This document shows positions 48,694 to 53,026 of a DNA stretch of 64,000 bases, piece after piece. Positions within the stretch are counted from its first letter, which is position 1; each line of letters begins with the position of its first letter. The translations under genes and the position numbers were made by a program. The stretch lies in contig NZ_RXIZ01000007.1 in assembly GCF_003987855.1 (NCBI RefSeq), forward strand, positions 340,424 through 404,423. The letters run 5' to 3'. Source of the DNA: Hyphomicrobium sp. (lineage in GTDB: Bacteria; Pseudomonadota; Alphaproteobacteria; Rhizobiales; Hyphomicrobiaceae). The notes below the pieces were generated by a model. It saw only the letters and a program-made list of their open reading frames with translations. It did not search any database and was not told the DNA's origin.

Positions 48694-48878
48694 GGGTCCC
48701 CTACTGTCATGTCCCTGGTCAGCAATCGACTGATCTTATGTCACAATCGTGGCGGTCAGGTCGACCATGGCCTAGTTCAGAGAGGCTAGATGCCGAGTGA
48801 AGCTGGTACTACGTGCCGGAACCTTTGGCTGACTTATGCATTTCATGTGCCGGCGGATTCTGGCGGCGCCGCTACGAT

Positions 48879-50855
48879 ATGAAGTTCATTGTGAATAACA
48901 TCCAGCAGTTCTTAGCCGGGATCTTCGCCCTTGCCGCCAATCCAGGCGCGTCCGCCCGCCGGGCGGCGTATTTCCTGTGCCTCGGAATCCTCATTCCTTC
49001 GTTAAGCTTCGCCGCATATCTCCTTAACGAGATGCATGCGCGCGAACTCGGTATCCTGCATCAGTCGGTTCAGGGGCGCGCCCTGGTCGCGGCCTCCGTA
49101 TTCGACGAACAGATGTCGTCTCTCCTACGGATAATAAAAGCGCTGCCCGGAACGCCAGCCACGGCAACTGAGAACACTTACGATCGCCTCCGCTCGGAAC
49201 TGGAGGCTCGTGGCATCGTGCTGTTTACCAGAGGGGCCAATCTCGACCTGTTGTCTCCGGCAAACGGCGCCAACGCAGCGGTCGTCAGTGTAGATACCGC
49301 GGCGCGGTCTGCGGCAGCCGCTGCCCTGACGACACTTGTGCCGCAGATTACGCGATACGGCGCCACCGCAGACGGTGGGATTAACATCTGGTTGGCGTCC
49401 GCATCCAAGAGTGATCCGCCATATCTCGTCCAGGCGCAGGTTCCCTCCTCTTACCTTGCATCGACATTCAAGAACTTCGTCGCCGACGGTCCCTGGTCGA
49501 TCTCGATCGTCGGGGCGGATGGTCAGGTGTATGCCGAAGCCGACGGAAAGCAGTTAACCCCCCGAAAAAGCGAGGTCTCAGGCAACCCTGCCCTCATTGA
49601 AGCGTTCGCTAACACGTCGCAATTTGGCTGGAGGATTACGGCAGGCATTCCGTCCAGGTCATTGGATCAAAACATACGGCGAAACTGGATGACCTTCCTG
49701 GCAATTTCATCCTTGCTCGCCATTGCATCGTTCACCGGCGCGACACTGCTGACGCGGAGTATTATCGAAAGAGATTCAAACCAATTGACGCAATCAGGAA
49801 TGCCGACGCCGTACGATCCGCCAGAGCCGTCACTCCGCCGTCCATCGTCCACTGAAATGGGCGAGGATCGGATTCGCACCGCCTTGAGCGCGGGAAGTGT
49901 AGGCGTGTGGCAATGGAACTTACAGTCCGGCCTTGTGTCTGTGGACGCCGAAGTGGCGGCTTTCCTGGGACCATCCTGGAGCGGAAAAGATCAGGTTGCA
50001 CGTGAGCTTCTTCACCTCATCGACCCGCATGATCGACCAAAGCTGCTGGACGCGATCAGACGAACCATAAGCGCGGGAAAACCGCTCGGAATCGAATTTC
50101 GGGTCCGCCGATCCGAGCATGACATTCGCTGGATTGCGGTGCGCGGAGCCGCGATCGGTCCAAAGGGTAAAATTGCCAGCAGGGGCGCTCGGGCTACGCT
50201 GTTATCGGGTGTTGCCTACGACGTCACCGACCAGAAAGTGAATCTCACACGCACGGACGCTCTCCTGCGCGAGGTTTCCCATCGTTCCAAAAATCTGCTT
50301 GCGTTGATCCTCGCGATGGCACGCCTCACCGCGCGCGATGCCGCTGACGTAAAATCGCATCTCAAGGATTTCACTCTGCGCGTGGCAGGCCTTTCTGCTT
50401 CGCAGGATCTGATTGTGGCGTCGGATTGGCAAAGCGTCGATCTGGCGACTCTCGCGCTGGCTGAGATCGGCGCCGTGGCGCGCACGAGTGCGGACCGTGT
50501 CGCCGTGTCTGGGCCGCCCGTATCGCTTACGCCAGAGGCCGCCCAAACTTTCGGAATGGTGCTGACCGAACTGGCCTTGAATGCGGTTGAACATGGGGCC
50601 TTATCAGCAGCGATGGGCGAGGTGCGGCTGTCGTGGGAGTTCCCCACTGATGAGACGATCTGCATATCTTGGATAGAAACTGGCGGCCCGCCGTACGTCG
50701 CCGACGGACCTAAAGGCTACGGCACATCGGTCGTCGAACGATTTTCGTCGCAGGGTCTGAAGCTCGCTGTACAGGCGTCGAGCGATGTCGATGGCCTGAA
50801 GTGGACCCTCAGCGGACCGCTCGCCAACATCGGCGCGCGTCGCGAGCGCGCATAA
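48879..50855 (+). CDS. HWE/HisKA_2 sensor histidine kinase of the general stress response
   Basis: A 658-residue membrane kinase likely to phosphorylate PhyR. The N-terminal helix (about 25-45) and second helix (about 270-290) bracket a 220-residue extracytoplasmic sensor domain. A PAS domain (about 330-430) follows, then the H-box REVSHRSKNLLALIL with the phospho-His, N-box TELALNAVEHGALS, a WE in VRLSWEF, and GYGTSVVERF. No receiver domain is attached. A GTG at 48813 would add 22 residues; ATG 48879 begins a more usual MKFIVNN. It is next to the nepR-ecfG/phyR genes, so it is the probable PhyK-type input. Confidence 0.88.
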   Translation: MKFIVNNIQQFLAGIFALAANPGASARRAAYFLCLGILIPSLSFAAYLLNEMHARELGILHQSVQGRALVAASVFDEQMSSLLRIIKALPGTPATATENTYDRLRSELEARGIVLFTRGANLDLLSPANGANAAVVSVDTAARSAAAAALTTLVPQITRYGATADGGINIWLASASKSDPPYLVQAQVPSSYLASTFKNFVADGPWSISIVGADGQVYAEADGKQLTPRKSEVSGNPALIEAFANTSQFGWRITAGIPSRSLDQNIRRNWMTFLAISSLLAIASFTGATLLTRSIIERDSNQLTQSGMPTPYDPPEPSLRRPSSTEMGEDRIRTALSAGSVGVWQWNLQSGLVSVDAEVAAFLGPSWSGKDQVARELLHLIDPHDRPKLLDAIRRTISAGKPLGIEFRVRRSEHDIRWIAVRGAAIGPKGKIASRGARATLLSGVAYDVTDQKVNLTRTDALLREVSHRSKNLLALILAMARLTARDAADVKSHLKDFTLRVAGLSASQDLIVASDWQSVDLATLALAEIGAVARTSADRVAVSGPPVSLTPEAAQTFGMVLTELALNAVEHGALSAAMGEVRLSWEFPTDETICISWIETGGPPYVADGPKGYGTSVVERFSSQGLKLAVQASSDVDGLKWTLSGPLANIGARRERA

Positions 50856-50995: not shown

Positions 50996-51020
50996 GGAAC
51001 CCACGCACGGTCGGTACGTT
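50996..51020 (+). promoter_or_regulatory. Predicted EcfG promoter of a small RNA
   Basis: GGAAC (50996-51000), 16 bases, CGTT (51017-51020). This matches the general stress sigma consensus GGAAC-N16/17-CGTT exactly. There is no plausible protein-coding gene right after it, but a hairpin terminator ends 114 bases further on. Confidence 0.65.
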
Positions 51021-51026
51021 AAATAT

Positions 51027-51134
51027 GCGTGACCGCGCCCGATACTCCCTCCCACTCCCCCCGTGGCCCAGGGCGTGGCATCACTTCGAAGAGTTCGCGC
51101 CCGCTTTCCCCCGAGCGGCGCGAACTCTCATTTT
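51027..51134 (+). ncRNA. Candidate EcfG-driven C-rich small RNA
   Basis: A start near 51027 (7 bases after the CGTT) and an end at the T-tract 51131-51134 give about 108 nucleotides. The middle is strongly C-rich, with TCCCTCCC at 51046-51053. A short hairpin, CCAC (51052-51055)/GTGG (51063-51066), shows a TCCCCCC loop. The terminator pairs GAGTTCGCG (51091-51099) with CGCGAACTC (51119-51127), and CCGCT (51101-51105) with AGCGG (51114-51118). C-rich loops can bind Shine-Dalgarno sites. GsrN of Caulobacter, a general stress small RNA, has similar size and C-rich loop. Homology is not claimed. Confidence 0.5.
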
Positions 51135-51178: not shown

Positions 51179-51204
51179 GGAACCGGCACAAAGGGTCGGG
51201 CGTT
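51179..51204 (+). promoter_or_regulatory. Predicted EcfG promoter of the DUF1328 gene
   Basis: GGAAC (51179-51183), 17 bases, CGTT (51201-51204): an exact match to the EcfG consensus, 42 bases before the DUF1328 start codon. Confidence 0.75.
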
Positions 51205-51245: not shown

Positions 51246-51419
51246 ATGGGAAATCTTCTTTATTACGCAGTCGTCTTTCTGATCGTGGCAATCGTCGCGG
51301 CCGCGCTTGGTTTTGGCGGCGTTGCCGGCACGGCCATGGAAGGCGCTCGTCTCATTTTCTGGGTTGCGATCGTTCTCTTCGTCGTCTCGATAATCGCGAG
51401 CTTCATACGCCGCGCTTGA
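51246..51419 (+). CDS. DUF1328 (YtjA family) small membrane protein
   Basis: 57 residues, [20 protein letters not shown] at the start, with two membrane helices (about 5-22 and 34-53) separated by a short Gly-rich loop, and a basic end FIRRA. This matches the YtjA/DUF1328 family, whose members are often stress-induced in alphaproteobacteria. The ATG at 51246 follows a weak GGAGA. An EcfG promoter lies upstream and a strong terminator downstream, so it is a single-gene stress unit within the general stress response locus. The biochemical role is unknown. Confidence 0.9.
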
Positions 51420-51546: not shown

Positions 51547-52353
51547 TTAGGCTGCGCGCTGCCCCGGCTTCCTGGACTTCAAACCGAAGAACAGCGATTG
51601 GCTGATCATCGCTTTGACGACTGCAGGCTCAAACGGCTTGGTAATCAAGAACACCGGCTCTGGTTTGGTGCCAGTCAGCAGGCGCTCGGGGAATGCGGTA
51701 ATGAAGATCACCGGGACGCTGATCGTCTCCAGGATCTCGTTGACCGCTTCAAGGCCCGAACTTCCGTCTGCGAGGTGAATATCTGCGAGCACGAGCGACG
51801 GCGCTTTCTTAGCGACTTCGAGAACTGCTTCCTGATGGGTGCGTGCGACGCCCTGTACCCGATGCCCGATATCGACAACGAGCGCCTCCAGATCCATCGC
51901 GATAAGCGGCTCGTCTTCGATGATCAAAACATCTGCTGAAAGTTGCTCGGCGATCTCCGCTCCGGCCATCTGCAGCAGCTCTGTGACGTGCGCAGGCGTG
52001 ACATCGAGCACCTGAGCCGCTTCCGCAGTCGAGAAACCTTCGACTGACACAAGAAGAAACGCCTGCCGCGGGAGCGGCGTGATCGACTCGAGCCTGCGTT
52101 CCGGCAGCGGCTTGTCGATCTCCGTGGTGTCATCGGATATCCGATTAACGGCCACCGAATTCCAGACCTTCGTGAAGGTGCGGTATAATGCAACGCGTGG
52201 CGCAATCGACCTGTCGAATGCATCCGAGTCCGCAATCAGGGCTTCCAATACCGCTGCAACGTAGTTGTCACCGGACGCCTGGCTGCCCGTCAGCGACCGG
52301 GCGTAACGGCGAAGATACGGAAGATGGGGAGCGATAGATTCAGCGATCGACAT
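51547..52353 (-). CDS. phyR: PhyR, anti-anti-sigma response regulator
   Basis: PhyR (268 residues) is the switch of the general stress response: when phosphorylated, its sigma-like domain captures NepR and frees EcfG. Residues about 5-130 are the sigma-like domain (LPYLRRYARSLTGS, and the sigma-4-like QAFLLVSVEGFSTAEAAQVLDVTPAHVTELL). Residues about 140-258 are the receiver domain with acidic pair Glu146/Asp147, phosphoacceptor Asp191 (VLADIHL) and Lys239. GAGG lies six bases before ATG 52353; the 52383 start is less likely. It is downstream of nepR-ecfG on the same strand. Confidence 0.96.
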   Translation of the reverse strand: MSIAESIAPHLPYLRRYARSLTGSQASGDNYVAAVLEALIADSDAFDRSIAPRVALYRTFTKVWNSVAVNRISDDTTEIDKPLPERRLESITPLPRQAFLLVSVEGFSTAEAAQVLDVTPAHVTELLQMAGAEIAEQLSADVLIIEDEPLIAMDLEALVVDIGHRVQGVARTHQEAVLEVAKKAPSLVLADIHLADGSSGLEAVNEILETISVPVIFITAFPERLLTGTKPEPVFLITKPFEPAVVKAMISQSLFFGLKSRKPGQRAA

Positions 52354-52471
52354 AGTGCACCTCGTAAGCTCGTCATTCAGCAAGAAGGCTACCGGCGCCT
52401 TGATGCGCTAACCTTCCCAGTTATGGCATTCCGTCGGAAGAGGGCCGACAGAACTCGAAAGAACTAGCTTC

Positions 52472-53026
52472 TCATCCGCGACTGACGGTTCGCGTTATCC
52501 CAGCGAACTCGCCGTTGGGGTTGATATTTTCCCCTGCCTCGAATCCAAGCGCCTTGTTCAGCGCAACCCTCGCGCGGTTCACACGACTCTTCACGGTTCC
52601 CACAGCCGCGTTCGTGATCTCTGCAGCTTCCTCGTAGGAGAAACCTTCCGCTCCGACAAGCAGCAAGACTTCCTTCTGATCGTCGCTCAAACAGCCGAAT
52701 GCCTTTTTGAAATCGACAAGATCCATATGGACCTGCTGCTCCGGCAGCACCGACATCCGCTCGGCCATGGCGCCGTCGGCATCCTCGACCTCCCGGCGGC
52801 GCTTACGAAGTTCAGAGAAGTAGGTATTTCGCAGGATTGTGAAAAGCCACGCTTTTAAATTCGAACCCTTCTCGAAACCTTCAAGGTTCGACCACGCTTT
52901 AACGAGCGTATCTTGCACCAGATCGTCAGCGCGCGTTGGATCGCCGCAAAGCGAGTTCGCGAACGCACGCAGATTTGGCACCGCTGCTATCAATAGAGAT
53001 TGCAGGTCGTCGTCGCGTATTGTCAC
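52472..53026 (-). CDS. ecfG: General stress response sigma factor EcfG
   Basis: EcfG (184 residues) is an ECF sigma factor that directs RNA polymerase to GGAAC-N16/17-CGTT promoters. Region 2 (about 15-80) includes DDLVQDTLVKAWSNLEGFEKGSNLKAWLFTILRN, and region 4 (about 115-165) includes DDQKEVLLLVGAEGFSYEEAAEITNAAVGTVKSRVNRAR. Its ATG overlaps the nepR stop by four bases, so anti-sigma and sigma are co-translated. It is expected to drive its own promoter at 53254-53279, the DUF1328 gene and the candidate small RNA. Confidence 0.97.
   Translation of the reverse strand: MTIRDDDLQSLLIAAVPNLRAFANSLCGDPTRADDLVQDTLVKAWSNLEGFEKGSNLKAWLFTILRNTYFSELRKRRREVEDADGAMAERMSVLPEQQVHMDLVDFKKAFGCLSDDQKEVLLLVGAEGFSYEEAAEITNAAVGTVKSRVNRARVALNKALGFEAGENINPNGEFAGITRTVSRG

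What the first reader, a model, noticed from the sequence alone, without database searches (positions are those of the whole stretch)
50996..51134. Candidate EcfG-dependent, C-rich small RNA next to the general stress genes
An exact GGAAC-N16-CGTT promoter is followed by about 108 bases with no credible protein. They carry a C-rich core (TCCCTCCC and a TCCCCCC hairpin loop) and end in a 14-pair hairpin plus TTTT. Size, promoter class and C-rich loop resemble the Caulobacter small RNA GsrN, which uses such a loop to bind ribosome sites. If real, it gives this locus a post-transcriptional arm.
Basis: partly seen in the sequence, partly recalled or inferred. Interest (0 to 1): 0.8.

Follow-up and report, generated by a model that had tools for sequence, protein, structure and literature searches.

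The report
Stress-controlled C-rich small RNA in Hyphomicrobium
Beside the master switch of the general stress response, this bacterium seems to carry a small gene for a regulatory RNA with cytosine-rich binding patches; it is kept in most related species and is built like a stress RNA known from Caulobacter, but common descent with that RNA is not shown.

Summary
GGAAC-N16-CGTT lies at 50996-51020, followed by a roughly 108-nt, C-rich, well-folded RNA ending in a hairpin plus TTTT. The motif alone is not above chance (135 genome sites, 163 reversed). Conservation makes the case: 17 of 22 genomes of this Hyphomicrobium genus carry the RNA beside phyR-ecfG-nepR. In the 13 found by blastn, at a fixed distance from the RNA, GGAAC is in 13 of 13 and CGTT in 12 of 13, while the spacer is only 37% identical. 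The C-rich core is near-invariant; stems change in a compensating way. It is unlikely to be a protein gene or the next gene's leader. The fold matches the published outline of GsrN: a 5'-end stem around an exposed C-rich strand and a small hairpin, then a terminator. Homology to a Caulobacteraceae GsrN is not detected. KatG, GsrN's proven target, is absent here and in 11 of 17 carriers. Best reading: an EcfG-driven small RNA pairing with G-rich mRNA stretches; targets unknown, expression untested. Such RNAs at such loci are already in print (PMC5869019, PMC3892343).

The parts
50996..51020 (+). EcfG-type promoter: GGAAC (50996-51000), N16, CGTT (51017-51020)
   Evidence: Read; taken at a fixed distance from the RNA match, GGAAC in 13 of 13 blastn-found loci and CGTT in 12 of 13, spacer 37% identical
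51027..51134 (+). small RNA gene, about 108 nt (start inferred from promoter spacing, not mapped)
   Evidence: Fold z -5.2; found in 17 of 22 genus genomes; reading frame not consistently kept
51029..51084 (+). outer stem formed by the RNA's 5' end: 51029-51040 with 51071-51078 and 51081-51084
   Evidence: Fold; two-sided compensating changes in 7 of 12 pairs on the 20-sequence alignment
51044..51053 (+). C-rich core ACTCCCTCCC, single-stranded up to 51051, proposed first pairing site
   Evidence: Near-invariant in the 13 blastn-found genomes; fold
51052..51066 (+). small hairpin CCAC-TCCCCCC-GTGG with C-run loop, proposed second pairing site
   Evidence: Fold; a like hairpin in 18 of the 20 members' individual folds
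51090..51134 (+). intrinsic terminator, stem 51090-51128 with CCCCC in its loop, then TTTT
   Evidence: Fold z -6.8; 11 of 16 pairs with two-sided compensating changes; short T run, missed by the simple scanner
51179..51204 (+). second EcfG-type promoter GGAAC-N17-CGTT, of the DUF1328 gene, outside the RNA
   Evidence: Found; GGAAC-N17-CGTT 183-211 bases after the first promoter in 11 of 17 genus loci; three of the other six loci lack DUF1328 too
51246..51419 (+). DUF1328 gene (neighbour)
   Evidence: Pfam PF07043, E 4e-14
48813..50855 (+). PAS-HWE sensor histidine kinase gene upstream (neighbour)
   Evidence: Pfam PF07536, PF08447
51547..52353 (-). phyR, anti-anti-sigma response regulator (neighbour; start chosen at the internal ATG)
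   Evidence: Pfam PF22029, PF22233, PF00072 on the longer frame 51547-52383
52472..53026 (-). ecfG sigma factor gene (neighbour)
   Evidence: Pfam PF04542, PF08281
53023..53223 (-). nepR anti-sigma factor gene (neighbour)
   Evidence: Pfam PF18557

Best explanation
A free-standing, trans-acting small RNA of the general stress response. When PhyR frees EcfG from NepR, EcfG-RNA polymerase starts at the GGAAC-N16-CGTT promoter and makes an RNA of about 108 nt that ends at the hairpin near 51134. The 5' end is locked in a stem, which holds out two C-rich patches (ACUCCCUCCC strand and UCCCCCC loop). These pair, probably on Hfq, with G-rich stretches of several mRNAs, changing their translation or stability. 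Shown here: promoter conservation, conserved structure, locus, lack of a consistently kept reading frame, presence of hfq. Inferred: EcfG dependence, transcript ends, pairing with mRNAs, Hfq use. Unknown: the targets and whether the effect is up or down.
For: Carried by 17 of 22 genus genomes, 1.9-2.8 kb from a nepR on the same contig in all 17 (coordinates). Taken at a fixed distance from the RNA match, with no promoter pattern used: GGAAC in 13 of 13 blastn-found loci, -10 box 96% identical, spacer 37%, 40 bases upstream 30%; in 6 of the 12 relatives the blastn match itself began after the promoter. The promoter sits 29-33 nt upstream of 5 of the 11 non-training matches of a model that does not contain it. 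Two-sided changes in 20 of 32 pairs, 90% of cells paired, 0 of 500 shuffles, slid controls at most 9 pairs (alignment fitted to the model). Topology in 19 of 20 individual folds against 94 of 1000 shuffles. Hfq in 22 of 22 genus genomes. Precedents: GsrN (PMC5869019) and ReC64 of Rhizobium etli, which is EcfG-dependent and lies in the ecfG1-phyR region downstream of a kinase gene (PMC3892343, passages read).
Against: No expression data. On the plain MAFFT alignment of the 13 close relatives the covariation is weak (16 of 500 shuffles reach the score; 298 of 500 reach the 4 two-sided pairs). Six of the 11 non-training model matches have no EcfG site. The scans of nepR regions for EcfG site plus C-run plus terminator do not by themselves beat the small reversed-motif control: 8 of 169 against 0 of 29, 9 of 399 against 0 of 97, Fisher p 0.61 and 0.22. 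No plausible target found: the exact core complement is rare, and six katG leaders pair no better than shuffled ones. Five of 22 genus genomes show no copy. The T run is short in the window.
Confidence: 0.75

Rival explanations
1. The C-rich RNA acts chiefly by binding a protein (Rho, Hfq or another C-rich-RNA binder) or free ribosomes, as a decoy, rather than by pairing with chosen mRNAs.
For: The C-rich patches are near-invariant while the stems drift; the terminator loop is often C-rich too; exact complements of the core in the genome are rare (7 against 17 reversed) and none of the six beyond the gene itself is followed by a start codon at ribosome-site distance. That C-rich single strands bind Rho is general knowledge, recalled.
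Against: GsrN, with the same outline, is shown to act by base pairing, proven by compensatory mutation (PMC5869019, passages read). The patches are short and partly inside a hairpin.
Confidence: 0.14
2. It is a 5' leader or attenuator of the DUF1328 gene, with read-through under some condition.
For: DUF1328 follows on the same strand in 14 of the 17 genus loci; the window's T run is short.
Against: DUF1328 has its own EcfG-type promoter downstream of the terminator, GGAAC-N17-CGTT in 11 of the 14 loci that have the gene. In three loci (L017-L019) no DUF1328 match and no second promoter are found while the RNA stays.
Confidence: 0.04
3. The stretch encodes a small protein (the 122-aa frame, or the 35-aa frame that spans the window's RNA).
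For: The frame through the core stays open in 10 of 14 loci and gives a similar peptide around the core (YSLP.PPWPR).
Against: In L012, L013, L020 and L021 it closes within about 40 bases of the core; no start codon is shared by all; RNA length varies out of steps of three (106-112); no Pfam match. The peptide likeness follows from the near-invariant RNA core.
Confidence: 0.02
4. A chance promoter motif next to an unrelated C-rich stretch.
For: The motif alone is not enriched in the genome (135 against 163 reversed).
Against: Motif, spacing and RNA are conserved together with a drifting spacer, and five relatives found by a model without the promoter have it in place.
Confidence: 0.01

Closest known systems
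GsrN of Caulobacter crescentus and Caulobacteraceae (Tien et al. 2018, PMC5869019)
   Same: About 100 nt, EcfG/SigT-type promoter, 5'-end stem holding out a C-rich patch, terminator, typically beside phyR-nepR-ecfG; in a Caulobacteraceae-like locus (L108) the same order of elements folds.
   Different: No blastn match and no model R1 match at the L108 element, though the blastn test is insensitive. Here the C6 run is in a small inner hairpin loop and a second C-rich strand lies beside it. The proven target katG is missing from this genome and from 11 of 17 carriers. Processing, Hfq dependence and function untested here.
ReC64 of Rhizobium etli (Jans et al. 2013, PMC3892343)
   Same: EcfG-dependent noncoding RNA of 88 nt in the ecfG1-phyR region, downstream of a histidine kinase gene; start mapped and direct EcfG control supported there (passages read).
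   Different: Sequence not compared, since the R. etli sequence was not at hand; no function is reported in the passages read.
Predicted GsrN-like RNAs of Rhizobiaceae, Brucella, Rhodopseudomonas, Bradyrhizobium (PMC5869019, Fig. 9 legend and section 14)
   Same: Predicted by the same marks: EcfG site and stress locus; for the Rhizobiaceae also an exposed C-rich 5' loop.
   Different: Hyphomicrobium is not among the genera named in the passages and sections that I read.

Membership tests
GsrN-like EcfG-regulated sRNA (criteria of PMC5869019) | near-consensus EcfG site upstream | tested here: met
   GGAAC-N16-CGTT in the window; without any promoter pattern, 12 of 13 blastn-found loci, the 13th AGTT
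GsrN-like EcfG-regulated sRNA (criteria of PMC5869019) | proximity to the sigT/ecfG-phyR locus | tested here: met
   Between an HWE kinase gene and phyR-ecfG-nepR; 17 of 17 carriers within 3 kb of a nepR
GsrN-like EcfG-regulated sRNA (criteria of PMC5869019) | evidence of intergenic transcription | not testable with these tools
   No RNA data at hand
GsrN-like EcfG-regulated sRNA (criteria of PMC5869019) | exposed C-rich loop held by a stem of the 5' end | tested here: met
   Individual folds, 19 of 20 against 94 of 1000 shuffles
GsrN proper (homologue of the Caulobacter RNA) | sequence homology to Caulobacteraceae GsrN | tested here: inconclusive
   blastn of the window RNA gives no match in 63 loci that include Caulobacteraceae-like L108 and L110, but it also misses L084 and L089, members from the same genus, so it is insensitive. 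Model R1 has no match at the GsrN-like element of L108 or in L110
GsrN proper (homologue of the Caulobacter RNA) | acts on the katG leader | tested here: not met
   No KatG in the window's genome; present in 6 of 17 carriers; six leaders pair no better than shuffled, with start codons picked by rule of thumb
GsrN proper (homologue of the Caulobacter RNA) | cleavage to a stable 5' isoform; Hfq dependence | not testable with these tools
   Needs northern blots; hfq gene is present in 22 of 22 genus genomes
Any Rfam 15 family | score over the gathering threshold | tested here: not met
   0 matches in the window; best sub-threshold match at the site 23.2 of 52 bits, E 0.32

The most novel reading that the evidence does not exclude
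A separate Hyphomicrobiaceae RNA family, not descended from GsrN, with two or three C-rich pairing patches, that arrived at the same design on its own: the general stress locus of Alphaproteobacteria would then have gained a C-rich riboregulator more than once. In this lineage it works without katG, so its essential target must be another, perhaps shared, stress gene.
Probability: 0.3. Interest if true: 0.6.

Novelty: new member of a known kind. Interest (0 to 1): 0.45.

Why it matters
It extends the proposed post-transcriptional arm of the alphaproteobacterial stress response to Hyphomicrobium, with a structure-backed model that matches no Rfam 15 family. Because 11 of 17 carriers lack katG, the genus offers a clean setting to ask what a GsrN-like RNA is for when its proven target is gone.

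Tried and rejected
Rfam: nothing over threshold; the permissive search gave only chance-level matches. The first alignment had reverse-strand loci unturned and is void; one search replaces it.

Model R1 gave 24 matches among 103 family genomes at E 0.1 or better, 11 of them not in the training set. Five of these 11 have an EcfG site at the right place (G004, G007, G061, G101, G102); six do not (L071 in G017, and G066, G069, G077, G094, G095), and I left those six out of alignment A4. Alignment A3 held one wrong-strand match and was replaced by A4. Two members (L084, L089) were found through the promoter scan, so their promoter is not independent evidence. The identities (17 loci: -35 100%, -10 94.5%, spacer 34%) were taken at sites picked with a pattern that demands GGAAC and GTT, so the box figures are partly built in; one search repeats the measure without such a pattern and is the one I rely on.

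The order-wide search of 249 genomes gave 3 weak matches outside the family: two have no EcfG site upstream; L141 has GGAAC-N16-TGTT 36 bases upstream, which my narrower pattern had missed. No stress-locus protein lies in these 3-kb loci. R1 over the 40 class regions gave 8 matches at E 10 or better, the best two at 0.017 and 0.018; one of these (L117) overlaps the EcfG-linked element of L117, the other does not lie at L108's GsrN-like element. The pattern scan of the species genomes gave 21 stretches; 5 match R1, one more (L147, Hyphomicrobium sulfonivorans) is the same type as L079, and the other 15 look like chance.

Outline scans of nepR regions: 8 of 169 EcfG-like sites against 0 of 29 reversed (60 regions); with other rules 1, 4 and 4 loci of 20, 20 and 40 regions, 9 of 399 sites in all against 0 of 97 reversed. 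Among the class regions the two rule sets differ at L108 (only) and L114 (only). Neither beats its control.

Target search: exact core complement and katG leaders, both negative. No genome-wide target prediction was made.

Full report
WHERE IT IS. The window is G000:C8:340424-404423 of a 3.78-Mb genome. Several same-genus contigs have the exact length of named records: G003's contig 5 (1,462,005 bases) that of Hyphomicrobium facile DSM 1565, and those of G008 and G016 records called Hyphomicrobium sp.. I therefore call the genus Hyphomicrobium; H. sulfonivorans carries the element type of G061, which the tool places in another genus of the family. The stretch lies between a PAS-HWE sensor kinase gene (48813-50855, +) and a DUF1328 gene (51246-51419, +), followed by phyR, ecfG and nepR on the other strand.

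THE OBSERVATION. The promoter motif and the RNA elements are as described. The fold is strong (z -5.2), the terminator more so than the 5' part. The motif taken alone proves nothing: 135 sites in the genome against 163 for the reversed motif, and 3 against 6 in the window.

CONSERVATION. blastn of 50960-51250 matches 13 of 22 genus genomes including its own; in the other 12 the match stays within the promoter-to-terminator part, and in six of them it begins only after the promoter. A covariance model of the RNA alone (R1) added G004 and G007, and the nepR-region scans added G015 and G017: 17 of 22 genomes. Of the five without a copy, G009, G010, G011 and G021 have only one nepR match, where 17 of the 22 have two; G018 has two, on contigs of only 5.3 and 5.6 kb. 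Absence in G018, and in G021 (88% complete), is therefore uncertain. Taken at a fixed distance from the RNA match, with no promoter pattern, the 13 blastn-found loci show GGAAC in 13 of 13 and CGTT in 12 of 13 (one AGTT), with 37% identity in the spacer and 30% in the 40 bases upstream. In 5 of 11 non-training model matches in the family the promoter lies 29-33 nt upstream of a match made without it; in 6 of 11 it does not.

STRUCTURE. Individual folds of the members give one plan: the 5' end in a stem that closes around a C-rich strand and, in 18 of 20, a small C-loop hairpin, then a terminator, often with CCCCC in its loop. A scripted test finds a 5' stem enclosing an unpaired C-run in 19 of 20 members and in 94 of 1000 shuffles. 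On the 20-member alignment, which is fitted to the model and so leans towards it, 20 of 32 pairs show changes on both sides with pairing kept, and no shuffle of 500 reaches any of the five measures. On the plain alignment of the 13 nearest the signal is weak. The structure claim therefore rests on the wider set.

NOT A LEADER, HARDLY A PROTEIN. DUF1328 has its own EcfG-type promoter beyond the terminator, as GGAAC-N17-CGTT in 11 of 17 loci. Three loci show neither that promoter nor DUF1328 yet keep the RNA. The frame through the RNA stays open in 10 of 14 loci but closes soon after the core in 4, without a start codon shared by all, and RNA length changes out of steps of three.

HOW IT MOST LIKELY WORKS. 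EcfG turns it on; the stem-held C-rich patches pair with G-rich mRNA stretches, probably with Hfq, which 22 of 22 genus genomes have. This follows the proven case of GsrN, where paired mutations in the loop and in katG restore regulation (PMC5869019; outline, sections 7, 14 and 17, and passages read). The target must differ: KatG is missing in this genome and in 11 of 17 carriers, and in the six carriers that have katG its leader pairs no better than shuffled leaders. The word GGAGGGAGT, the exact complement of part of the core, occurs 7 times, one being the gene itself, against 17 for the reversed word; none of the other six is followed at ribosome-site distance by the start codon of an ORF of 60 aa or more. 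Pairing by shorter or imperfect matches was not tested genome-wide. The target question stays open, and a protein decoy remains a minor rival.

HOW WIDE. In 60 nepR regions of the family and class, 8 of 169 EcfG-like sites are followed by a C-run and a terminator, against 0 of 29 reversed sites; with added structural rules over 80 regions, 9 of 399 against 0 of 97. The controls are too small to make this significant, so spread beyond the genus rests on single cases (L073, L075, L079, L094, L111).

KNOWN OR NEW. EcfG-driven RNAs with a C-rich loop at the stress locus have been proposed for several Alphaproteobacteria (PMC5869019), and ReC64 of Rhizobium etli has been shown to be EcfG-dependent (PMC3892343, passages read). 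Hyphomicrobium is not named in the parts of PMC5869019 that I read. The searches 'Hyphomicrobium' with 'small RNA' (9 papers) and EcfG, small RNA, general stress response and Rhizobiales together (2 papers) listed no title describing this RNA. I also searched GsrN (20 of 64 papers listed), RpoE2 with small RNA, anti-Shine-Dalgarno sRNAs, C-rich stress sRNAs and ReC64; of these I saw the listings, plus passages of PMC12559287 (no mention of GsrN) and PMC7143759. A Caulobacteraceae-like GsrN was recognised in L108. Its loop is complementary to target words printed in PMC5869019, and its PhyR is closest to PDB 3n0r, which I recall as the Caulobacter protein. It has the same order of elements. blastn finds no similarity to the window RNA, but it also misses the same-genus members L084 and L089, and model R1 has no match at that element. 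Hence: the same kind by anatomy and locus; homology to GsrN neither shown nor excluded.

Noticed in passing
L091:8580-8800, L096:3390-3610, L093:7280-7530: In family genus g11 (G064, G063, G066) an EcfG-type site near nepR is followed by a longer stretch (about 190-240 nt) with a shared stem around CCCCCTCCCCGACCCTAG and a second hairpin that holds CTCCCTCCC in two of the three: perhaps a longer version of the same RNA.
   Followed up: partly
L076:1501-1591, L077:1501-1591 and L072:1501-1591: C-rich hairpin RNAs with terminators but no EcfG site. The two g20 genomes (G094, G095) share sequence well upstream of the RNA, which suggests a different promoter and a separate C-rich RNA family.
   Followed up: no
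L071:1501-1597: A second C-rich, terminator-bearing RNA-like element in G017 on another contig, without an EcfG site, beside the stress-locus copy of that genome.
   Followed up: no
L094:10676-10790: In genus g2 (G024) an EcfG-type site in the nepR-phyR region is followed by a simpler RNA: a 10-bp stem around CCCCCCC and CTTCCCTC, then a terminator with a CCCCC loop; a related element is in L098.
   Followed up: partly
L141:1465-1578: In another family of the order (G598) GGAAC-N16-TGTT lies 36 bases upstream of a weak model match whose terminator loop holds CTCCCCCCCC; no stress-locus gene in the 3-kb locus.
   Followed up: no
window 51179-51204 and 51246-51419: DUF1328 gene with its own conserved EcfG-type promoter, a likely member of the stress regulon; gene and promoter are both missing at this place in the H. 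facile group, L017-L019.
   Followed up: yes
G000:C1:465794-465895: A second nepR copy away from the main locus in this genome; 17 of 22 genus genomes have two nepR matches.
   Followed up: no
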